In this document: piece by piece, positions 6,800-63,710 of the stretch
Position numbering within the stretch: position 1 is the stretch's first letter
Layout of the letters: each line of letters opens with the position of its first letter
Assembly: GCF_964204865.1 (NCBI RefSeq)
Contig: NC_135250.1
Coordinates: forward strand, 12,090,001 to 12,154,000
Source: Styela clava
Taxonomy: Eukaryota > Chordata > Ascidiacea > Stolidobranchia > Styelidae
Length of the DNA stretch: 64,000 bases
Direction: 5' to 3'
Position numbers and translations under genes: made by a program
Notes under the pieces: model-generated
Seen by the model: only the letters and a program-made list of their open reading frames with translations
Databases searched by the model: none
Told to the model about the DNA's origin: nothing

Positions 6800-9344
6800 A
6801 TGTCAAAGTTGAAAGCAACACAGTTTACAAAGGGAAGGAACAAGTTTAGAATGCAGAATCCGTATAACATAGACGCTTTCAAGCGACAGGACGAAATTGA
6901 GTCTGACTTGATTTCACCGAATACCAATTTACCGCCAGTTGGTTCGTACGTCACAACTTGCAACCAGGAAAAAGTTTCTCATAATAAAGAAATAGAAAAA
7001 TTTGACAGTGATGAACAAACATTCGAAATGGAGACTCATGAGACTAAATTCTTTTCCGCAATAAGAGATCTATGGAAACAAGGAAAAATGTGCGATGTCA
7101 TGCTCTCAGTTGACAAAACGATTTTCCGAGCACATAAGGTAAGCATAAAATACTATCAAGTTTGATCATATGAAATTGAAAAAATATATAAGCAATTCAT
7201 GAGCATTGACCTAATAATGGGCAAGAAATGATGTAGTTTATCATATGAGCCAATTAAAAGTTTCATGCATTACGATTAATTAGTTTTGTAGATGGCTCCT
7301 CTTCTCGGTTGGGCAATCCACCACTGGCCACGATGGCTTCTACCTAAACATCGAAAATTCGCGCCATTGTGTTTCTCTTGTCGGATGCTGATAGAATCAT
7401 ACTATGAATCATAAATCAAGGCCTTTAATTTCTAACCAACATACCGAAAAAGTAGTTCTTGGTTCAGTCCAAAAATACCATATATATATAGATTCTCTAT
7501 CCACAGACTATGTTTACATTGAGTAGGATCTCTTCTCCATTCATGTTTTCACAAAACACAAGTGATCGTGTCAAAGTGTCTCAATCCTGAGAGCATTTTT
7601 GATATGTGTGCCTAATCTAATGCACATCATCTCAGGTGTGACTTTTCAGCGTTGAAAAATAAATGCTACACTACTAAAAAACACCACACTTCTCGCATCT
7701 TGATATTTATCAAATTTCATTCTCATTATGCCCATAAAAAGATGTCCGAAAGAGTTGTTTAATTGCAATGCACTTTTAAATCTAGATTGCACTTGCTGCA
7801 TGTAGTGAGCACTTCCGTGATCTTTTTGTCAGTCGCGAAAAAGCTTCAACGGTGATGGACACTTCTCGAATACCCCTCCTTGGTATCAAAAGTGAAATTG
7901 TGAAAAAGATTATCGACGCTGTTTATACGTAAGTAAGAAAGTGTAGTACGGAAATGTAGCTATTATAAGATCTATGCTTGTGTACAGCTGCGTTCATTCG
8001 GATGATCATTTTGGGTTGGAAAAATTAGGATAACCAAACGCTGATAACGCGGTACAGTTCATCATGTATACTAGACCTAAATTCGTCGAAACTGTTTATC
8101 GTAAATAGTGACTGAAATGTATGACAGTACGATACTTCCACATGCAATGATTGCCATATGACCAAGTTTTACATCATAGACCTCTGGTTTGAAAGTGTCG
8201 TCGAAGTCAGGCACAGTGTAATGTATTGCAAGTAGATGAGATAACTTCCAACTATCGAAATATTTGGTACTGAACCTTTCAAAAAGTTCCATTTGAAATT
8301 TAGTGTCATTGTGATTAATCCTTCTATATTAAAGCTGTATCAGTACCTTACAGGGCAAAAATAATTTTGAATTCGGCTACAGTTGGAGATGTCCTATCAG
8401 CAGCTGCTTATCTTAGAATGCCGTCGATAGTCGATGCCTGTCAATCGTATCTTTCACAACATCTCAGTGTTGATAATTGCATCAAAACAATTCAAGTAAG
8501 AACTGCAATGTTATGACCTAAATATTCTGGATAAATTGTCCACTCACAAACGTACAATCCTCATAGGTAGCTCACATGTATAATTTGGAGGCACTGAAAG
8601 AACGTTCATATCAAATCGCCTGCTTGAACTTCAAAACGGTATGCAATCATGCCGATTTTATGAAGTTACGATATTATGAGTTGCTTGAAATGTTGCCAAG
8701 ACAAGACCTTGCTTTGGATTCAGAAATCCAGGTTTTTAACGCAATCATACGATGGACCGATTACGAAGGGTTAGGACATTTAATTATTGCTGATTGTATT
8801 GATCATTCTATCAAACGCTTCGAAATATTCAATTTATTTGCAGGTCAACCAGACTACCTTACTTTGCTCGGCTTATGAGGCATGTAAGATTTCCGCTGAT
8901 GACAGAAAGTCAATTAGTGGATCAGGTAGAAGGATCAAGTTACGTTAACGAAAACGCCGAAGTTGGAGAACTTGTAAGAGAAGCTGTTCGTTATCATCTT
9001 TTGCCTTATAGGAGAAGTATATTACAAACCCCACGGACTAAACCAAGAACTACTTTTTCGGTATGTTGGTTAGAAATTAAAGGCCTTGATTTATGATTCA
9101 TAGTATGATTCTATCGGCACTCGACAAGAGAAACACAATGGCGCGAATTTTTGATGTTTAGGTAGAAGGCATCGTGGCCAGTGGTGGATTGCCCAACCGA
9201 GAAGAGGGACCATCTACAACACGCGTGTATTATTTAGTTCCAGATGAAAATATTTGGCGCCCATTGACGATTATGCCAGAAGCTCGACATCACCACGCAG
9301 GTTAGCGACATTCATACTAGCAATCTAATATTGAAATAAGCAAC

Positions 9345-20359: not shown

Positions 20360-20888
20360 CGAGCAGCCTATTTAAACTGTTTGCAACTGTTATGATTCTC
20401 ATATATCCTACAGTTAAGCATTTCTTCTTCGATCGACTTCTTCTTCGATCCACAACATAAGTGTTTTTCGACAAATAAAATACTGAAATACCACTAAATA
20501 CTGGCTACTATTACTATTGAATTGAACAATGCTAACTTTAGACATCTTTTGTCCCAAGTTCTCTCAAAGATCAACAGGTCGAATTATAATTATATAATGG
20601 GTGATTTCAACTATAATCTTATTGATGAGTCCAATATGAATACCAGCCTATTTGTTGATATTATGCACAGTCTGGCCTATTATTCTCTGATAAACTGTCC
20701 CACCAGGATAACTTCAAGTTCTGCTACCTGTATAGACCACATCTGGACAACGTATATGATAAAAAAATTAACAGTGCTGTTTTAGCAGAATGTATTTCTG
20801 ATCATTTGCCAATTGTGCAATGCTCTCTCCTAGAAAAACAAATCCAAAACAGAATTGAAACACTTCGTCGCCATTTACTTCGTCCAAC

Positions 20889-22991
20889 TTGAATACTTTT
20901 ATAAATGAATTGAATTCCATTGATATTGATGACTTCAACAGCATACAGGATCCAAACATATGCTTTGAAAATTTTTTTGATAAATTCTCTACTGTTTACT
21001 CTCAGTCTTTTCCTTACAGAACACAAACAAACAGATTAAACAAACTTTGGTATGATACTGAGTTACGCAAACTCAACAAAGTCAAACAAAAACTTTATAA
21101 GAAATTAATAAACAATAAAAACATAGATGACAAACACAAGTCACATTATAATGAATGCAGGAATCTTTATGCTCGACTTCTCCATAAAAAGAAATCAAGT
21201 TATTATATGTCCAAATTTGCCTCTCACAAAGGCAACATTAAGGCAGTATGGAAAACAATTAATGAACTAATCGGTAAAAATAAAAACAATTCATGTCCTT
21301 TAATTGGACTTGAATGCAGTAATACACAAATTGCAAATAAATTTAACGAACATTTTTCCCAAGTGGCACAAAGATTGCTCGACAATATGCCACAACCAGC
21401 TAGCTGTGACAAAAATTACATTTCATATCTTGGGAGGCAAGAATCGTCATCCATGTTTTTAAGGCCAACTACAGCATTAGAAATAAAAAATATCATACGC
21501 GAAATGAAGCCCAAGTCAAGTTTTGGAATCGATGGTATTCCATTCAAAATATTGAAATATATTCCAGAACACATCACTGATATTCTAGCATACATTTTCA
21601 ATCTCTCACTATCTACTGGATTATTCATTGAAAGTTTCAAGACATCTAAAGTTCTTCCTCTCTTTAAAAAGGGTAGTGTCTCAGATCTTGGGAACTATAG
21701 ACCTATTAGTCTTCTACCGTCGTTTTCTAAGATTCTTGAAAAAATAATGTATAGTAGAATGTCAAACTACTTTGAAACCAACAATGTTTTCCACTCGCAT
21801 CAATTCGGTTTCCGCAAGCAACACTCCACTGCTATGGCTGCTAATGTTTTGGTACACAAACTTACCAAGGCTTTTGAAGGCAAACAACATGCAATTGGAA
21901 TATTCCTTGATATTTCAAAAGCTTTTGACACCATTGACCATTCCATCCTTTTAAGTAAGCTCTATCACTATGGAATTAGAGGCGTCCCATTCAATTGGAT
22001 CAGGAGCTACCTGCAAGACAGAAAACAAATTGTGCAATATGACAACTCATTCTCTACAAATATTTGTGTCATGAAGCACGGAGTTCCACAAGGATCTTTA
22101 CTTGGCCCATTATTTTTTCTAGCTTACATTAATGACATGTCCAGGTGTCTGAAATCCTCCGAGTCAATCATGTTTGCTGATGACACTGACTTGATTCTTC
22201 ATGGGGAAAACCTTGAAGATCTGTTTACAGTTGCAAACTACGAACTAGCCAACATTCATAGCTGGATGTTAGTTAATAAATTATCTCTTAATGCTAACAA
22301 GACTAAATTTGTATTATTCCATCCAAGCAAGCATAAAAGTGTGAGTTGTACGAAACCACTGCTGCTCAATGGCAATGAAATTGAAAGAGTGAAAGAAATA
22401 AAATTTCTAGGTGTTATCTTCGATGAAAATCTGTCTTGGAAATCACACATATTGCATGTTATTGGTAAAACAAAAAGAAACTTGGCAGTTGCTGCCAAAG
22501 TATCCCAGTGTGTTAATCAATCAGCTTTACTAGCAATGTTTCAATCATTACTACTCAGCCATATCCGATATTGTTGCTCAGTCTGGCTCCATGGTAAGAA
22601 AACACTTGTCTCAAAATTGCAAAGTATTTGTAATAATTTTCTAAGAATTCTTTTTAGGAAAGGTAAACGTGAAAGTGTAAACCATTTCTATAAAAAGCTA
22701 AATATACTCAAAGTTGAAGATATAATGAAATTTGAAGTATTATCATTAGTCCATGATTTCCATAACAATTCCTTGCCAAACTGCTTCGACGACATACTAA
22801 CTAAAATTACTTCCAATCGGAGAAGTAGTTCCAACCTGTTCATACCTTTTATGAGTACATCTGTGAGCCAGCATGCCTTATGTTATACTGGGCCCAAGCT
22901 GTGGAATTCTCTCCCCTTGAATTTAAAGACATTGAAATCCAAAAAATCTTTTCAGAAAAAAGTCAGGTCCTACTTGGTATCAAAATATTAG
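20889..22991 (+). CDS. LINE reverse transcriptase (ORF2 fragment), 700 codons open
   Basis: An RNA-dependent DNA polymerase of a non-LTR element, uninterrupted for 700 codons. Visible blocks in order are SSFGIDGIPFKIL, GNYRPISLLPSFSKILEKI, QFGFRKQHST, FLDISKAFDTIDHSIL with its first catalytic Asp, HGVPQGSLLGPLFF, the catalytic FADDTDLIL, then IKFLGVIFDENLSW. The C-terminal GPKLWNSLPLNL motif is seen in CR1/L2/Jockey-type elements. The nominal start is a TTG; the true protein would begin upstream in the endonuclease, which is frameshifted here. The intact polymerase suggests a fairly recent insertion, but the copy cannot make a complete ORF2 protein. Confidence 0.92.
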   Translation: MNTFINELNSIDIDDFNSIQDPNICFENFFDKFSTVYSQSFPYRTQTNRLNKLWYDTELRKLNKVKQKLYKKLINNKNIDDKHKSHYNECRNLYARLLHKKKSSYYMSKFASHKGNIKAVWKTINELIGKNKNNSCPLIGLECSNTQIANKFNEHFSQVAQRLLDNMPQPASCDKNYISYLGRQESSSMFLRPTTALEIKNIIREMKPKSSFGIDGIPFKILKYIPEHITDILAYIFNLSLSTGLFIESFKTSKVLPLFKKGSVSDLGNYRPISLLPSFSKILEKIMYSRMSNYFETNNVFHSHQFGFRKQHSTAMAANVLVHKLTKAFEGKQHAIGIFLDISKAFDTIDHSILLSKLYHYGIRGVPFNWIRSYLQDRKQIVQYDNSFSTNICVMKHGVPQGSLLGPLFFLAYINDMSRCLKSSESIMFADDTDLILHGENLEDLFTVANYELANIHSWMLVNKLSLNANKTKFVLFHPSKHKSVSCTKPLLLNGNEIERVKEIKFLGVIFDENLSWKSHILHVIGKTKRNLAVAAKVSQCVNQSALLAMFQSLLLSHIRYCCSVWLHGKKTLVSKLQSICNNFLRILFRKGKRESVNHFYKKLNILKVEDIMKFEVLSLVHDFHNNSLPNCFDDILTKITSNRRSSSNLFIPFMSTSVSQHALCYTGPKLWNSLPLNLKTLKSKKSFQKKVRSYLVSKY

Positions 22992-38637: not shown

Positions 38638-39523
38638 AGATTAAAGTAAAAATATTTTGATAAAAAATTTAAAAATAAAAGCATATGAATAAATAAAAAT
38701 TCATCCCGAACCCCCTCTTTAAGAGTTTTTGCTAAAATTAAATAAAACCTTTTCTGCCACATTTTCGTCTATGGATAGTGTCACGTGTTTTTAAAATAGC
38801 ATTTTTCAAATAAAATGGCGTAAAATTTAGAAAATGAGATCCATTTTCTAATCTCTCGTTTTAGCACAAAATCCGGAAAAAACATCGACGCATCACTGGG
38901 TTTTTCCAGATTCGAACATTTATAGCCACGCAGTTGAAGCTGAAACCTTGGATAATACGCTGGCTATTGTTTTGGGCATATATTCGGTTTTAAGATATTT
39001 TTTATTTGTTGTTGAGATTTCGATGCTGTCGAACAATGTTGTTAAATGATTTAATGAATTTCATTAATATGCGGTTAAGTCGACAAGATTGAATAATAGC
39101 AATCTCAAAAATAGAAATTAATATTCGATCAAACTCTACAACTGGATATCAATTTTAATACTAGAAGCCGTAGATAACGAAGAACAAAAGTAAGATTTTA
39201 GAATAAATGTCTCTTAAGGTCGAATTTATTTTTAGAATAAACGATTAAAAAAATTATATTTTTGTTCTCAGTTTTTTTTCTTAATTAATTTCACGTAGTA
39301 AGGTAGTAATCGAAGTTAAATTGACAAAGCGTGTATTTCTTAGTCCAATCGTACTTATAGAGACAAATTAGATCACTCGTATATTTATCCATCAAATATC
39401 AACGCGGGTAATATTGTTTTCAGTAGAACAACTATCATTGGTAGTATATTATCATACTAGTCTAGTCGCCAATTTCACCCTGTATTTTTAAGTGTGAATA
39501 ATACAATATATTATTTTATTTTC

Positions 39524-39525
39524 AG
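39524..39525 (+). promoter_or_regulatory. Candidate 3' splice site in the Dmrt 5' UTR
   Basis: A pyrimidine-rich TTATTTTATTTTCAG ends here, 43 nt before the Dmrt start codon. It could end a 5'-UTR intron or accept a spliced leader, as tunicates trans-splice many mRNAs. The sequence alone cannot tell which. Confidence 0.4.
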
Positions 39526-39568
39526 TTCTAATATTTATCATTATTCAATAAACTTGAATACAGAACAA

Positions 39569-41440
39569 ATGGCAAATGACAACGAAGAATTCGCGAATAC
39601 AGCCCTCGATTCATCACCAGAACAAGATGATCTTTCGTCGCCAAACATGGGACCTCAAAAGCCGCTCAGGACCCCAAAATGTGCTCGGTGTCGTAACCAC
39701 GGAGTCGTGAGCGCCCTAAAGGGACACAAAAGGCATTGTAGATGGAGAGATTGCCAGTGTTCAAACTGTCTGTTGGTTGTGGAAAGACAAAGAATAATGG
39801 CTGCTCAGGTAAAATATAATATATCCGACTGTGTTCTGTTGGAAGCTAGAAAAATCTGTGTGTTCCATGACTGAGAAAAATCACATATCAAATGCGCCGA
39901 ATCCCATATTTTATTCGAAAGTTGTAATTTAGGTTGAAAGGTTTTCATATTACAGTACCAGAAAAACTGGTATCATAATGTTTATAAACAAATATTACAA
40001 AATGGCGGAAGACATTGGTGTCAATATTCAGAAAAAAATAATGACAATCTATACCGAAATTGCTATATGAAGTAGCTTTGCAATGTATAAAGCCATGCGT
40101 CAAATAATTCTATGTCGATGTTACTTAAGATAAAACTCTGAAAATTGTTGGTTTGAGTTTCAGACAGTCGCAAGACCTTCTCATTGATGTTTTTATCCAG
40201 GTTGCACTCAGACGACAACAAGCTGCTGAGTTGAAAAAGGGCGGAAGTTTGTTGAATCCAGATTGTGACATCACCAATGATATTACGAGAAAACAATCGC
40301 GTGATGCAATGAACAGAGCAGCAGCAGAATCTTTGAAAATACGTAGCAGAGCATTGAGAAATGCTCGATTGTCCGCAAAGGGATTTCTTGACGGTAGGAT
40401 TTTATTTTGTACATCAGTGGAAGATGAGTTTTCAAAAGTGAACAATTACCCTATAGCATCGCATTTATGGTCAGAGTAGATTAGGTAATTAAAGATTTTC
40501 AATTCCGTTGTACAATTCCGTTTGTGTTCACTTCAACTTCAAAATTCTATTATTATATAAATCAGCTATTTTCTGTTTGCCAATTATTTACTTTTACCTT
40601 CTAGAGACTGGACTTGCTTTGAATCCAGACCATTTTCCACCGTTAACAGAACGAATGCGAAAACGTAAAACATTTGCTGATGAAAGTCTACAACATATGC
40701 AAGAGAGTGCAAATTATTTTCGACCTACATTTTACGCGCCGAAACCCAGTGCAAACGTGTTTACTCGTTATTGTGGGCAATCTATACCAAATAATTCCAG
40801 AGTGACTTCTCCCAAAGTTGTTCTACCAGAGAGATTGGGTCATTTGAGTAGAGTGCCTTTAGGCGTCGAGGAGAACCATTCCCTCACAAACCCGAATATT
40901 TCACCAAGGCAACGTGACGTCATTGCTGATACGCATCGCACCACGCCTGATTTTTCTTCTGAAGATGACGTACCTGACTCAAAACAATACCCATGGCTTT
41001 CACGTAAAAGAAAATCTACATGCCGGGTTTCACCACAAGAGAAGCGGCCTTGTTATCCATGGGACAAGCTACCACTCCAAACTAACAATGAAGTCGGAAA
41101 TTTTACCAATCCTTTGTATAATATGTTTCATTCGATGAATTCAACAATTCCGAAAGTTCCTTTCTCTAGTCCATTTGAATTTACCCCAGTTCCCAATTTC
41201 TTGGCTCTCGATACTCAATTAAAACAAATTCAACGAATGCAATTTCTCATATCAGCATATCAAAATAGTCGACTCCTTGATCAGAAAAGTCCTCTATATT
41301 TTCAACATCAAAATTTAATGTTGCCTAGTTCTTTATTTTCTTCTAACGTCGACGCTCAATCTCCGATAGCATCATCGCCAGTCGGCACAAAATTGCATCC
41401 GACTAATTTCACTGTAGAATCTATTATTGGTACTCAGTAG
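39569..41440 (+). CDS. DM-domain transcription factor (Dmrt family), 3 exons, 422 aa
   Basis: Exons are 39569-39808, 40201-40393 and 40605-41440 (phases 0 and 1, GT-AG introns). Residues about 34-94 form a DM domain, a DNA-binding fold in which two zincs are held by intertwined Cys/His sites. The ligands are visible as C38, C41, H44, H53, C57, C62, C64 and C67. The basic recognition helix continues over the first intron as [19 protein letters not shown]. The [13 protein letters not shown] core is most like DMRT4/5 (DMRTA) proteins, but I see no DMA motif, so the subgroup is open. The rest is low-complexity, Ser/Pro/Asn-rich, with a basic RKRKS-type patch. The last residues, FTVESIIG at 413-420, fit an eh1-like Groucho-binding motif. 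The start is the first Met after an in-frame upstream region that looks untranslated. An AATAAA lies at 41720. These factors typically act in sex determination, gonad or neural development. Confidence 0.93.
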
Positions 41441-51598: not shown

Positions 51599-54122
51599 AA
51601 CAAGAGAGCTATGCTCAAATATATGGTCACATAATTTTGATGACGTCATAGCGAAAAAAAAGTAATAGTCTTCTGGAGAAAATTTTTATCTTTAACCACT
51701 AAAAATTTCAAAGCAATTGGTCCAGTATTCGAAGAGAAAAGCGACTTTTAAAAACGTGTCAAGCGGTACTGAGTTAGCAGTCAGGCAGCATCTTACCTGT
51801 ACACTGTAGGCCATATACGGTAATTGATCACAGAACAGTTGTTCCCTTGCAAATTTTATGTTGTTTACACTTTAGGAAATATAATTGATCACAGAACAAT
51901 TCTTCCCTTTCAAATTTTATGTTGTTTCCAGTAGACTCTCATCAAAATAAACAAATATAGTAGGCTGCAAGTGCTACAACGCTTGCATTACTGCACTGGT
52001 AGGACCGTGAAAGAATAAGTTACGGTAATTTCATTGTGGTAAGACACCGTACACTGTAGGCCATATACGGTAATTGATCACAGAACAGTTGTTCCCTTGC
52101 AAATTTTATGTTGTTTACACTTTAGGACAGATAATTGATCACAGAACAATTCTTCCCTTTCAAATTTTATGTTGTTTCCAGTAGACTCTCATCAAAATAA
52201 ACAAATATAGTAGGCTACAAGTGCTACAACGCTTGCATTACTGCACTGGTAGGACCGTGAAAGAATAAGTTACGGTAATTTCATTGTGGTAAGACACCGG
52301 TACCGGCACCAGTACCAGTATCGTACTTACGTACTGAGCTACCAGTACCGGTACCGAACCTGTAGGTCTGATATTCCGTTCCGCATACGATAGGCTATAA
52401 AACTTGCATTGCAGCATTAGTAATACCGCGGAAGGAATAAGTCAATTTCACTGCGTTACGGTACCTGTATGGCAACTTACCAGTACCGACCTACAGTAGC
52501 TGTAGTACTGAGCAAGACAATCGATCGCGAAACCGCTTGAAATAAGTGTAAAACAGTGTTCCCATGAGTAAAAATAAATACCGCGAAATTTTGTATGAAA
52601 TATCATATCTCATAGGATTCATATAAAATTTAAGAATGAACAAAAGTAATAGCCTTCTAGCGAAAAAATTAATCTTTAACCACTGAAAATTTCAAAGCAA
52701 TTGGTCCAGTATTCGAAGAGAAAAGCGACTTTTTAAAAACGTGTCAAAGAACAAGAACAACAAGTGAGCTATGCTCAAATATATGGACACGTAGAGTCAC
52801 ATAATTTTGATGACGTCATAGCGAAAAAAAAAGTAATAGCCTTCTGGAGAAAATTTTCATCTTTAACCACTAAAAATTTCAAAGCAATTGGTCCAGTATT
52901 CGAAGAGAAAAGCGACTTTTAAAAACGTGTCAAGCGGTACTGAGTTAGCAGTCAGGCAGCATCTTACATGTACACTGTAGGCCATATACGGTAATTGATC
53001 ACAGAACAGTTGTTCCCTTGCAAATTTTATGTTGTTTACACTTTAGGAAATATAATTGATCACAGAACAATTCTTCCCTTTCAAATTTTATGTTGTTTCC
53101 AGTAGACTCTCGTCAAAATAAACAAATATAGTAGGCTACAAGTGCTACAACGCTTGCATTACTGCACTGGTAGGACCGTGAAAGAATAAGTTACGGTAAT
53201 TTCATTGTGGTAAGACACCGGTACCGGCACCAGTACCAGTATCGTACTTACGTACTGAGCTACCAGTACCGGTTAGCAGTCAGCCAGCATCTTACCTGTA
53301 CACTGTAGGCCATATACGGTAATTGATCACAGAACAGTTGTTCCCTTGCAAATTTTATGTTGTTTACACTTTAGGACAGATAATTGATCACAGAACAATT
53401 CTTCCCTTTCAAATTTTATGTTGTTTCCAGTAGACTCTCATCAAAATAAACAAATATAGTAGGCTACAAGTGCTACAACGCTTGCATTACTGCACTGGTA
53501 GGACCGTGAAAGAATAAGTTACGGTAATTTCATTGTGGTAAGACACCGGTACCGGCACCAGTACCAGTATCGTACTTACGTACTGAGCTACCAGTACCGG
53601 TACCGAACCTGTAGGTCTGATATTCCGTTCCGCATGCGATAGGCTATAAAACTTGCATTGCAGCATTAGTAATACCGCGGAAGGAATAAGTCAATTTCAC
53701 TGCGTTACGGTACCTGTATGGCAACTTACCAGTACCGACCTACAGTAGCTGTAGTACTGAGCAAGACAATCGATCGCGAAACCGCTTGAAATAAGTGTAA
53801 AACAGTGTTCCCATGAGTAAAAATAAATACCGCGAAATTTTGTATGAAATATCCTATCTCATAGGATTCATATAAAATTTAAGAATAAACAAAAGTAATA
53901 GCCTTCTAGCGAAAAAATTAATCTTTAACCACTGAAAATTTCAAAGCAATTGGTCCAGTATTCGAAGAGAAAAGCGACTTTTTAAAAACGTGTCAAAGAA
54001 CAAGAACAAGAACAACAAGAACAAGAACAACAACAACATAATATTGAAACAATCGTTATGTCCACTACGTGTCCAACAACAACATAATATTGAAACGATC
54101 GTTATGTCCACTACGTGTCCAA
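51599..54122 (-). repeat. Composite A/B/C repeat array, tandemly duplicated
   Basis: Two large units of about 1.2 kb lie head to tail: 51599-52758 and 52759-54000. Each begins with a minus-strand family A copy that stops at GTGTCAA. Two B repeats of about 250 bp follow, then a C segment rich in TACCGGTACC words, then a second, partial A copy. B units start near 51763, 52049, 52935 and 53276; their GTACACTGTAGGCCATATA words are at 51799, 52049, 52970 and 53298. Within each B are two diverged halves (TGATCACAGAACA and CAAATTTTATGTTGTTT). The second large unit has an extra 78-bp piece at about 53219-53276. No coding frame is present. Confidence 0.85.
53892..54122 (-). repeat. Family A repeat closing the composite array
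   Basis: A minus-strand copy whose outer end is duplicated: GTCCACTACGTGTCCAA occurs twice (about 54060-54075 and 54106-54122), each preceded by ACAACATAATATTGAAAC. It also has an expanded (AACAAG)n tract after GTGTCAAAG. Confidence 0.8.
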
Positions 54123-54609
54123 TAACTATCCATATAATGATAACGAGAAGAAATATATATAATCAATGGTAGATCTTTAACAGGCATATATATACATATG
54201 TAAAGGCATACAGAGAGGATAGAATTGAAATTGCTTTTGATGAAAATGTATATTCAATACAAGATAAAGAAAAGTTTGTCAAATTATTGTATACTGCACA
54301 TAAGTCCGTAAGATCAAATTTCGTAAATTTGAAATAAATATCAATTGTACAGATTTTGGGAAAAAATAATATACGCCATCTACAATTTTTCTGCGCAATG
54401 TGAATAAAATATTGCTGATTTCACGCTAGCTACACGTGAAAGCGTGTACGAATAATCGACTGGATAAACCATATGATCAAATTTTTGACCAGTAGTGTTC
54501 TATAAGCTCTATTCTATAAAAATCTTTCAAAATGCCAAAAATATTCGATTTGGCTTCCTTATGTCTCGCTATCATACTGGTTTTACAGTCAAACATAACT
54601 GCTTTGATA

Positions 54610-54976
54610 AACAAAAGAGCAATGCGAAAATATATGGACACGTTGCCAAAACGATGTAGTATCAAAACTCCCACAGTGCCAGTAGTCTGACCACCAGATC
54701 AATGAGATGTGATCAAGGAACCACGGCAAGCAATGATTGATTTTGATGACTTCATCACACACAACTTTATATAAAAACGAATCCCACAGATATTTCTGAA
54801 ATAAATAAAAGTAATACCCTCCTAGCTACAACCACAAGTTTTAACCACTGAAAATTTCAAAGCAATTGGTACAGTTGTCAATAAAAAAAGCATTTTTTTC
54901 ATAATCACAAGAAATAAATCTAACAACAACGGCAGCATAATACCAAAACGATTCATATGTACATTTTATGTCCAAA
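54610..54976 (-). repeat. Old, diverged family A repeat beside AHCY
   Basis: Ends and internal blocks (AATATATGGACACGTTG, TTTTAACCACTGAAAATTTC, TTTCAAAGCAATTGGT) match other copies, but substitutions are many and there is extra central sequence. It ends about 200 bp before the adenosylhomocysteinase start codon. Confidence 0.7.
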
Positions 54977-55183
54977 AAGCATAAAGTATCACGCAATAAG
55001 CATAAGTGCAATTTTCCGGGGCCAAAGGTCGTGAAAACATCCATTCACAAATTTCGTAATGTTGACATTTCATGCTCGAGTAATTCTCCGCAGTATATAT
55101 TCTCACTTCTCGCTCTCACACGTCTCCTTTCACCAGCTGACACCGTTGTTGTTTCTTTTGTGCCAGGTAGAAAATTGCCGAAG

Positions 55184-56494
55184 ATGACGCCTTTACCTTA
55201 CAAAGTTGCTGATATAAGTCTTGCCGATTTCGGTCGCAAGGAAATAAATATAGCAGAAAATGAAATGCCAGGACTTATGTCGCTACGAAAATTATACGGG
55301 CCGTCAAAACCACTAAAAGGCGCTAGGATAGCGGGGTGCCTGCATATGACGATTCAGACAGCAGTTTTAATAGAAACTCTCAGAGAATTGGGTGCAGAAG
55401 TACAATGGTCGTCATGCAATATTTTTTCCACACAAGATCATGCTGCCGCAGCTATCGCATCGACCGGGGTTCCAGTTTTTGCATGGAAAGGTGAAACAGA
55501 TGATGAATACATGTGGTGTATTGAGCAAACATTGGTGTTTTCAGATGGCCAACCATTAAACATGATTTTGGATGATGGGGGCGATCTTACTAACTTGGTA
55601 CATCAGAAGTTTCCTCAGTATTTAGAAGGAATCAAAGGGATATCTGAAGAAACAACAACAGGTGTTCACAATCTGTATAAAATGATGGAAAAGGGTACTC
55701 TCCATACCCCCGCAATCAATGTAAATGATTCGGTTACCAAAAGCAAATTTGATAATTTATACGGATGCAGGGAGTCGCTGGTTGATGGAATAAAACGAGC
55801 TACCGATGTTATGTTGGCAGGAAAAGTTGCAGTCGTTGCAGGATATGGTGACGTCGGAAAAGGAAGTTCGTCTTCACTTCGTGCTTTTGGTTGCAGAGTC
55901 ATAATCACGGAAATTGATCCGATCAATGCATTGCAAGCAGCAATGGAAGGATATGAAGTTACAACAATTCAAAAAGCTGCTTCTCGTGCCAACATTATCG
56001 TTACAACCACTGGTTGCAAAAGCATTGTTACTCAAGAAATATTCGAAGCGTTGCCCAATGATGCAATTGTTTGCAATATTGGACATTTTGATTGTGAACT
56101 TGATGTCGCATGGCTCAATAAGAACGCAATTGAAAAAGTGACTGTTAAGCCACAGGTTGACAGATACAGAATGAAAAGTGGAAAGCACGTCATTCTACTC
56201 GCAGAAGGACGATTGGTCAATCTTGGGTGTGCAACAGGTCACCCAAGCTTTGTCATGAGTAATTCATTCACCAATCAAACTCTTGCACAAATTGAACTGT
56301 GGTCGAACAATGCTGAGTACAGCAAGTATGCAAAGGGAAAAGTTTACATGTTGCCCAAACAACTTGATGAAAAAGTCGCAGCATTGCATCTTGACCATCT
56401 CGGGGTCGAGCTCACTAAATTATCAGAAGATCAATCGCAATATCTAGGGGTCGCTGTCAAAGGGCCGTACAAACCAGAACATTATCGTTACTAG
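55184..56494 (+). CDS. Adenosylhomocysteinase (SAH hydrolase), intronless, 436 aa
   Basis: A cytosolic NAD-dependent enzyme that reversibly splits S-adenosylhomocysteine into adenosine and homocysteine, removing the inhibitory by-product of methyl transfer. The frame is complete from [20 protein letters not shown] to [11 protein letters not shown]. Family landmarks sit at their usual places: [11 protein letters not shown] at 130-140, [12 protein letters not shown] at 153-164, K186, D190, N191 and C195, the NAD-binding GYGDVGKG at 220-227, then [27 protein letters not shown] and the C-terminal Lys and Tyr that close the cofactor site. The open frame continues 72 codons upstream to an ATG at 54968, but family length and residue numbering fix the start at 55184. 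The gene has no intron, unlike the multi-exon neighbours and vertebrate AHCY, so it may be an intact retrogene. TATATAT at 55094-55100 is a possible TATA box. An AG at 55166-55167 after a pyrimidine-rich stretch could instead be a 5'-UTR acceptor. Confidence 0.95.
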
Positions 56495-58070: not shown

Positions 58071-58526
58071 CAGGGGTCGGCAATATACGGCCCCTGGATC
58101 AGATCCGGCCCGCGGAACAATATAATCCGGCCCGCGACGCTTCACTGAATTATATTAACAAAACCACTTTATTGACGATATTCGTTACGTTACAGATTTT
58201 TTTTGAGACACTAAATTATAATATAACCTAACATGTATATATATAATTCACAATCACTCGTTTAATGAGCCTATGAATCGATTATAATTAAACAAATGGC
58301 AACAGAACGTAAAAAAGTTGATGCTGAGTGCAAATCATTTAATGGCGCAGAAAATATTCAAATGATCAGTCTTCGCGCGCCTGAAATTTAACTGGAATCT
58401 GTGTGAAAAAAATGTGATTCATTGGCCATTTCTTCGGTTTTTAACTTTCTAAAAGTATGTGCGGCCCGCCAATGACTTGGAACCTTCAATTTTGGCCCGT
58501 GAACGACGAAAGTTTGCCGATCCCTG
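58071..58526. mobile_element. hAT-like MITE with CAGGGGTCGGCAA ends
   Basis: A 456-bp element starting CAGGGGTCGGCAA and ending TTTGCCGATCCCTG. Flanks GTCTAGAC (58063-58070) and CTCTAGAC (58527-58534) agree at 7 of 8 positions. Subterminal GGCCCGCG and GCGGCCCGCC are typical of this large class of non-autonomous hAT elements. Confidence 0.87.
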
Positions 58527-61767: not shown

Positions 61768-63710
61768 GTAGTAAAATCGGAAAGTGTGAAGTTATAAAAT
61801 CACAGCTAAGGGGTCGTTGTCTTTCTAAGCGTCCCGATTTGAAGTCACAAAAATGTGGTAATCCTAATTATATATATCAGGGGTCGGCAACCTTTTATCG
61901 CTAGCGAGCCTAAATGGAGGGTTGCAAGTCTCGGCGGGCCGCACATATTCTTAGAAAGTCCAAAACCGAACGAATGGCCGATGACTCACAATTTTTCGCA
62001 CAGATCAGAGGTTGAAAGTTTAAACTCGTCAACTCAACACAGTCGTCTTACTTGAAGTAAAAAAAAATTAACAATTGACATTTAATGGAACACTTTTTGC
62101 TGCATCACACTTCGCACGTTTTCGACATCAGGCGGCACACTTGGATGAAGCCAAGATTAGAACATTTTCTGAATGAGAATCACTAACCTGATTCAGATAA
62201 ATTGCGCATCGAGTGGTCACTAGAACTAGATGGTTAAATAAACAAATGCCCGCTTGTCCTTTTAAACCGGGGATCACCAAACTACGGCCCGCCGAGTCCT
62301 TTCATCCTGCCAGCGATAACCGAAAAATGGCGATTTTTTCGACTTCCTTGTTCATTTCGTAACATTGGCCAATCAGCAAGTTGCAAAAAGTGACGTGACA
62401 ATAGACCCTTTCGCATCCACTCAGACACTTTTGCACTCGGATAGTTTTTCAGTCGTGGTTATAAAAACAATAGCCTACTTCATTTTCACGATTTTGGAAG
62501 CTATTTGTCAGTTTTTGCTCGCGATTCCGAAATTTAAGTATGAATCAAATAAGTCAATCATCATTTTACCTCTTTAGGAGTTGTAGTTTAATTGCAGTAA
62601 TCAAAAATTGTCTAGAAATAGCTGAGATAAAACAGGCTAAAATTCACTAATATTCGATTGATATTTTTCTTCATAATTACGATGTACCATTCAAAATCTC
62701 AATATAAAATATTGGCAGCAAAAATAGCCAAATCAGTTGCTATAGTTTGGTATAAATAGCTGAAAACGGGTCAAAATGCTGTTCCCGTTTCTACACGCGG
62801 GATGGGGCGAACATGGCTCAGATGGAATGAAGCAGATGCTGTAAACATGCCTCACGAATTTCGGTTTTAAAGTTTACATGGCACGCGTGCATTCTACACG
62901 AAGTAATAGGCGATTGGACAATAAATACGCTTGTTCTTACTTCCTTAAGGGGTTCGACAGTTATCCAAAGTGCCAAAAACAAGTCGAATCCGCGATTATA
63001 GACTTCCTTGTTTATTTCTACAACAGTGGATAGATAATCGATCAGTTGTTAGTGTTGACGCAGCAATTAAACTTTCAACTAGGGATGGGCAATGTAGAAT
63101 AATTTACTATTCTAGAATAGTTAAATCGAATCCAGAATCCTATTCTATTTTCATACTTATTCAAATAGTGGGAATTTCTACATTGCTGGATTTAGATGGT
63201 AAAAAATTGCAAATGTATTACTTACTATAAATGTATTATCTATTTGGAAATGTCCTGAACATTGGATTTCATTTGATACTAAACAGGCAGTTCCCAGGAC
63301 AATAAAATTTAGGAATATTACAATATTTTTTGCCTTCAATTGTTCCAAATGTATGTGATCCCTAAATATTGATATGCTAAATTAAGAAACGCTTTACACA
63401 CTTCAATAGTAAGCGGTTAAATACAAAATATACATGAAACGGCGTTAAATCATTATTAATGTAAGTCTGCCGAGTATACTAAAACATACCCGCTGAGAAT
63501 TAATTAGATGCTGAACCAGCATGTGGCCACTGCAACCTATGCGCCGTTGTAAAATATTAAATTTAACCACTATTAATTAAAATCAACCTTCTATTCTGTG
63601 AGAGCAAGACACGTAAAACCAAGTTCCCGTAAACGCGATTTTGTACTTAGTTATTAGGTAATAACATCTGAAGACGAACTCATTTTCTATGATTATCGTT
63701 ACATATCATT
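61768..63710. other. Repeat-rich intergenic sequence, no gene seen
   Basis: CAGGGGTCGGCAACC at 61878 starts a hAT-like fragment. Its later part (GTTTTCGACATCA, TTGGATGAAGCC, about 62090-62180) matches 25440-25520. A further hAT-like end (GGGGATCACCAAACTACGGC) lies at about 62270. No complete element could be bounded and no exon was recognised. Confidence 0.45.

What the first reader, a model, noticed from the sequence alone, without database searches (positions are those of the whole stretch)
7286..9219. Inverted copy of a Kelch exon-intron junction inside the same gene
7286-7470 in intron 1 is the reverse complement of 9035-9219, base for base in length with about 95% identity by eye. The arms flank exons 2-5, so the nascent RNA could form a 185-bp hairpin. 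Inverted repeats flanking exons are known to favour exon circularisation, RNA editing or skipping. The copied piece includes coding sequence and both splice sites of intron 5, which is unusual because such arms normally come from transposons.
Basis: partly seen in the sequence, partly recalled or inferred. Interest (0 to 1): 0.72.

Follow-up and report, generated by a model that had tools for sequence, protein, structure and literature searches.

The report
Inverted exon-junction copy within one gene
A 185-base piece of an animal kelch-type gene, spanning the end of one exon, a short intron and the start of the next exon, has been copied backwards into the gene's own first intron; it looks like a fairly recent accidental DNA duplication that could make the gene's RNA fold on itself, but no function is shown.

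Summary
Positions 7286-7470 match the reverse complement of 9035-9219 at 177 of 185 bases without a gap. Arm 2 covers the last 26 nt of exon 5, all of intron 5 (101 nt) and the first 58 nt of exon 6 of a BTB-BACK-Kelch gene. Arm 1 lies in intron 1. One search of the window's own 376.6-Mb assembly found only these two copies, so the arms do not look like a common transposon. The copy keeps the intron, shows no clear poly(A) or target-site duplication by eye, and differs by seven transitions and one transversion. All three differing codons change the amino acid. This fits a local DNA-level inverted duplication now drifting in intron 1. If arm 1 is still present when arm 2 is transcribed, the two could form a very stable duplex (-332.8 kcal/mol). 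Both splice sites of intron 5 would then be buried, which argues against the 9060-to-7786 circle and leaves 8769-to-7786, intron retention or editing possible. Four of seven transitions keep pairing, as expected without selection. No RNA data or relatives were available. Ordinary origin, untested consequence; possibly an earliest stage of a hairpin-RNA locus.

The parts
7283..7470 (-). Arm 1: inverted copy of the exon 5 / intron 5 / exon 6 junction, inside intron 1 (core 7286-7470)
9035..9222 (+). Arm 2: taken as the original; last 26 nt of exon 5, intron 5, start of exon 6 (core 9035-9219)
6800..7138 (+). Exon 1 (start codon, N-terminus, start of BTB)
7139..7785 (+). Intron 1, 647 bp, holds arm 1
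7786..7928 (+). Exon 2 (BTB)
8354..8495 (+). Exon 3 (BTB)
8567..8769 (+). Exon 4 (BACK)
8844..9060 (+). Exon 5 (BACK and linker)
9061..9161 (+). Intron 5, 101 bp, wholly inside arm 2
9162..9300 (+). Exon 6 (start of the Kelch part)

Best explanation
A fairly recent, local, DNA-level inverted duplication. A repair or replication error copied about 185 bp of the exon 5-intron 5-exon 6 junction and placed it backwards 1.56 kb upstream in intron 1 of the same gene, where it has since drifted to about 4% divergence. Shown: sequence, orientation, only two places found in the assembly, intron kept. Inferred: break repair or template switching as the route, arm 2 as the original, recency (no mutation rate was applied), and a near-neutral fate. 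In most transcripts intron 1 is probably removed before, or in competition with, pairing. When pairing does occur, the expected effect is a hairpin that hides both splice sites of intron 5 and could be a substrate for ADAR or Dicer.
For: 177/185 identity without gaps. Only 2 places found in 376.6 Mb. The copy keeps intron 5 with its GT and AG unchanged (sequences printed). Junctions show no clear poly(A) and no target-site duplication by eye. 7 transitions to 1 transversion (list); intron 4/101 and exon parts 4/84 differ about equally. All three differing codons are nonsynonymous (K/E, G/A, G/E), as expected if the copy does not code. G.U-keeping changes 4 of 7 transitions, the neutral half. 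Other low-copy local duplications occur in this genome: 8 direct pairs in 224 kb. Local inverted duplication is a known mode: newborn C. elegans duplicates were often adjacent and inverted (one passage in PMC2728529); short templated inverted insertions occur in apes and are enriched in introns (passages in PMC7954356).
Against: No microhomology beyond an imperfect 3 bp at one junction (2 of 3 match) and none at the other, so the specific route is not marked. A run of five A follows arm 1 on its right side; it is on the wrong side for a poly(A) tail of a sense transcript, but it is there. The length (185) exceeds the maximum reported for the ape gold-standard template-switch set (128). No related species or reads could be checked, so age, fixation and polarity rest on one sequence. 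In 160 kb of evenly spaced stretches no other low-copy inverted pair was found, so the event type is not shown to be common here. Rivals in which the duplex has a role are not excluded.
Confidence: 0.75

Rival explanations
1. The hairpin has a regulatory role at splicing: pairing hides both splice sites of intron 5 and brings 7786 near 8769, giving exon 2-4 circles, exon 5/6 skipping or intron-5 retention.
For: Duplex energy -332.8 kcal/mol and 181 of 185 arm positions paired in register in the fold of 7260-9260; donor and acceptor regions of intron 5 fully paired with arm 1 present, 56% and 86% paired when the fold starts at exon 2. Inverted repeats in neighbouring introns favour back-splicing (passages in PMC8516421).
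Against: No RNA evidence. Arm 1 leaves with intron 1 if intron 1 is spliced first. The differences do not favour pairing. Arm 2 contains the 9060 donor itself, so that circle is disfavoured. Without intron 1 the splice sites are also largely paired in the model, so the fold prediction discriminates poorly.
Confidence: 0.12
2. A nascent hairpin-RNA (endo-siRNA) locus: the foldback is diced and its siRNAs match exons 5 and 6 of the same gene.
For: A long near-perfect inverted fragment of a gene near its source resembles D. simulans hp58, a hairpin with an inverted fragment of exon 2 of a gene one gene away (section 12 of PMC10317233).
Against: No small-RNA data, organism unnamed, RNAi proteins not searched. 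Self-silencing would normally be selected against (reasoning, no source).
Confidence: 0.06
3. Assembly artefact (fold-back chimera).
For: Fold-back chimeras are known in long-read data (recalled, not searched).
Against: A chimera would be near-identical and usually palindromic with little spacer (recalled); here 95.7% identity, 7 of 8 differences transitions, and a 1564-bp spacer.
Confidence: 0.03
4. A transposon or retrocopy carrying gene sequence.
For: A reverse transcriptase frame lies in the window (20859-22988). A five-A run borders arm 1 on the right.
Against: Only 2 places found in the assembly, intron kept, no poly(A) on the expected side and no target-site duplication seen by eye.
Confidence: 0.04

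Closest known systems
Local inverted gene-fragment duplicates (as described for newborn C. elegans duplicates)
   Same: Adjacent, inverted, partial (one passage of PMC2728529)
   Different: Here 185 bp, not a gene copy, and lying inside its own source gene
Short-range template-switch insertions (four-point model, great apes)
   Same: Nearby reverse-complement copy, in an intron
   Different: Those gold-standard events have a median copied length of 12 and a maximum of 128 (passages of PMC7954356); here 185 with a 1.56-kb spacer
Drosophila hpRNA loci (e.g. D. simulans hp58)
   Same: Inverted gene fragment near its source gene that could fold into long dsRNA
   Different: No small RNAs shown here; one arm is the gene's own exon-intron-exon, and the loop is 1.56 kb of the gene
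Intronic inverted repeats that promote circular RNAs or A-to-I editing
   Same: Complementary arms on both sides of exons; low-divergence pair
   Different: Arms are single-copy gene sequence, and one arm overlaps two exons and both splice sites instead of lying in an intron

Membership tests
Local DNA-level inverted duplication | Inverted orientation, near the source, with intron kept | tested here: met
Local DNA-level inverted duplication | Not a dispersed repeat | tested here: met
   2 places in the own assembly; the tool warns that counts of repeats are lower bounds
Local DNA-level inverted duplication | Absence of the copy in an outgroup (empty site) | not testable with these tools
   the own assembly has no relatives held
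Template-switch / MMBIR product | Microhomology at junctions | tested here: inconclusive
   imperfect, 2 of 3 bp, at one junction, none at the other
circRNA-promoting intronic inverted repeat | Complementary arms in the introns on both sides of the circularised exons | tested here: inconclusive
   arm 1 in intron 1; arm 2 overlaps exon 5, intron 5 and exon 6
circRNA-promoting intronic inverted repeat | Back-spliced reads | not testable with these tools
   no RNA-seq
hpRNA / endo-siRNA locus | Dicer-dependent 21-22-nt RNAs from the arms | not testable with these tools
   no small-RNA data
ADAR substrate | Long near-perfect intramolecular duplex | tested here: met
   prediction only: 181 of 185 positions paired in register in the MFE
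ADAR substrate | ADAR gene in this genome | not tested
   searches did not complete
Retrocopy of a spliced mRNA | Intron removed, poly(A), target-site duplication | tested here: not met
   intron 5 present; no poly(A) on the expected side and no target-site duplication seen by eye

The most novel reading that the evidence does not exclude
A gene caught at the birth of a self-derived hairpin RNA: the inverted copy of its own exon-intron-exon junction makes a dsRNA switch that buries both splice sites of intron 5 and yields siRNAs or edited RNA acting on the same gene.
Probability: 0.08. Interest if true: 0.65.

Novelty: new member of a known kind. Interest (0 to 1): 0.3.

Why it matters
Where hairpin-RNA loci come from is called an ongoing conundrum by the D. 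simulans authors (section 12, PMC10317233). A low-divergence, two-copy inverted junction inside its own source gene is a clean natural test of whether such foldbacks are edited, diced, circularise exons or are simply ignored. As DNA it is an ordinary mutation.

Tried and rejected
Smaller templated pieces around arm 1: besides the two arms, only three 12-bp matches (E 0.28) in 9 kb around the gene. RNA families at gathering score and tRNAs in the window: none. I first guessed a schistosome; this was never tested, three paper searches leaned on it, and it is dropped. A GST family search of the assembly and the neighbouring adenosylhomocysteinase gene did not name it. Pfam scans of other window frames: 0 of 5 with a family (one of the five was exon 1 alone), 3 of 8. 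Selection for pairing: tested through the G.U count, no sign. Paper searches (5 papers listed of 5; 12 listed of 594) showed no title or abstract start that describes an inverted exon-junction copy in its own gene; of those papers only PMC9989829 was opened, in passages, so this is not a claim that none exists.

Background: the sample is 224 kb, the window plus 16 evenly spaced 10-kb stretches of contig C1 (4 of 20 requested lay beyond its end). Within 8 kb, at 80 bp and 80% or more, there were 19 inverted and 118 direct pairs. Of the 19, 17 lay in the spaced stretches, all with a median BLAST depth of 7 or more in the sample; the 2 low-copy ones are both in the window, the finding and 58397-58526/61878-62005 at 81%. 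Of the 118 direct pairs 8 were low-copy (6 in L007-L009, 2 in the window). With other settings (no dust filter; sites every 300 bp) 13 of 320 sites, in 4 of 16 stretches, had a reverse-complement match within 2 kb, identity up to 86.3%; in the window 2 of 200 sites, both the finding. The scans disagree on L009, which only the second flags, and holds one multi-copy inverted pair at 88.9% that the second did not sample. The window was chosen for this feature, so no unbiased rate follows.

Full report
Check of the observation. The two stretches are reverse complements at 177 of 185 positions with no gap; blastn gives 188 bp at 95.2% with the arms 1564 bp apart. This is far beyond chance.

The gene. 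Translating the exons 6800-7138, 7786-7928, 8354-8495, 8567-8769, 8844-9060 and 9162-9300 gives one open frame, with GT..AG at introns 1-5. The model was made by eye; no transcript was available. With three downstream Kelch exon parts joined by eye, it matches Pfam BTB (6e-26), BACK (3e-25) and Kelch_1 (4e-29), and phmmer lists long KEAP1 and KLHL22 chains among the best 60 of 190 matches, the top one being a designed Kelch protein. Arm 2 is the last 26 nt of exon 5, the whole of intron 5 and the first 58 nt of exon 6 (61 with the 3-bp extension). Arm 1 lies in intron 1 and is antisense to the gene. Because arm 2 carries the reading frame and the splice sites of the gene model, arm 2 is taken as the original (inference).

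How many copies. The window's own assembly (376,610,584 bases, 379 contigs) gave two matches to the arm, these two. The tool notes that counts are lower bounds for repeats and that very common words are skipped, but a dispersed family would be expected to show.

Background. In 224 kb, 17 of 17 local inverted pairs in the 16 spaced stretches were multi-copy, and the finding is the only low-copy inverted pair above 85% identity; against that, 8 of 118 direct pairs were low-copy, so local duplication as such is not rare here. With a local dsRNA scan modelled on the one described in PMC9989829 (passages), but at fixed 300-bp steps, 13 of 320 sites had a reverse-complement match within 2 kb, identity up to 86.3%; in the window 2 of 200, both from this pair. 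So near-identical inverted pairs of unique DNA look uncommon, but the sample is small, comes from one contig, and the window was selected.

Origin. The intron is present in the copy, so it came from DNA or unspliced RNA. By eye the junctions show no target-site duplication and no clear microhomology (2 of 3 bp at one side, none at the other); five A follow arm 1 on the right, the wrong side for a tail of a sense transcript. Seven of eight differences are transitions (list). Two pairs of neighbouring differences are swaps (GA for AG at 9208-9209, CT for TC at 9120-9121), so eight differences may be six events. Intron (4/101) and exon parts (4/84) differ alike. The three differing codons all change the amino acid (K/E at 9040, G/A at 9169, G/E at 9208-9209), which fits drift in a non-coding copy, though three is few and the polarity is not tested. 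Local inverted duplication is known elsewhere: one passage seen in PMC2728529, passages in PMC7954356.

What it would do in RNA. The arms form a duplex of -332.8 kcal/mol; in the fold of 7260-9260, 181 of 185 positions pair in register and the energy goes from -465 to -475 (arm 1 shuffled, three trials) to -705. With arm 1 present 9 of 9 donor-region and 14 of 14 acceptor-region bases of intron 5 are paired; when the fold starts at exon 2, 56% and 86%, so the contrast is modest. These are equilibrium folds and ignore transcription, proteins and splicing. Arm 1 is about 1.6 kb upstream of arm 2 and is removed with intron 1, so timing decides. Since the 9060 donor is inside arm 2, a circle closed at 9060 is not favoured by this geometry; one closed at 8769 is possible. 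Four of seven transitions keep a G.U pair, close to the neutral half (P = 0.5): nothing indicates selection for the hairpin.

Known relatives. Young repeats able to form dsRNA are the main A-to-I editing targets in most of the animals studied there, with flies and a sea squirt as exceptions (PMC9989829, passages); inverted repeats facilitate back-splicing (PMC8516421, passages); and D. simulans hp58 is a hairpin with an inverted fragment of exon 2 of a gene one gene away, which rises in a dcr-2 mutant (PMC10317233, section 12 read). The present locus works, at most, like these; none of their RNA criteria could be tested.

Verdict. A real inverted duplication of an exon-intron-exon junction within its own gene, found nowhere else in the assembly; ordinary in origin, with an untested RNA consequence.

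Noticed in passing
window 9120-9121/7384-7385 and 9208-9209/7296-7297: Four of the eight differences between the arms are two neighbouring pairs in which the two bases are swapped (CT/TC and GA/AG), hinting at multi-base mutation events.
   Followed up: partly
window 51599-54126: Tandem arrays with 250- and 328-bp units, 98% alike; parts recur inverted at 27.7-28.3 kb, 19.0-19.3 kb and 10.55-10.8 kb, the last apparently in an intron of the same kelch gene.
   Followed up: no
window 20859-22988 +: 710-codon open frame with a reverse transcriptase domain (PF00078), LINE-like.
   Followed up: no
window 39461-39871 +: Frame with a DM domain (doublesex/mab-3 type).
   Followed up: no
window 54941-56491 +: Adenosylhomocysteinase apparently in a single exon (frame residues 84-517 match solved chains over their length).
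   Followed up: no
window 58397-58526 and 61878-62005: Second low-copy inverted pair, 81% identical, 3.35 kb apart.
   Followed up: no
L007 5606-5995 and 7321-7710: A 390-bp direct repeat, 100% identical, 1325 bp apart, in a spaced stretch of contig C1.
   Followed up: no
G000 contig C13 about 3.07-3.15 Mb: A cluster of 11 matches to the GST C-terminal domain (of 26 in the assembly) on both strands.
   Followed up: no
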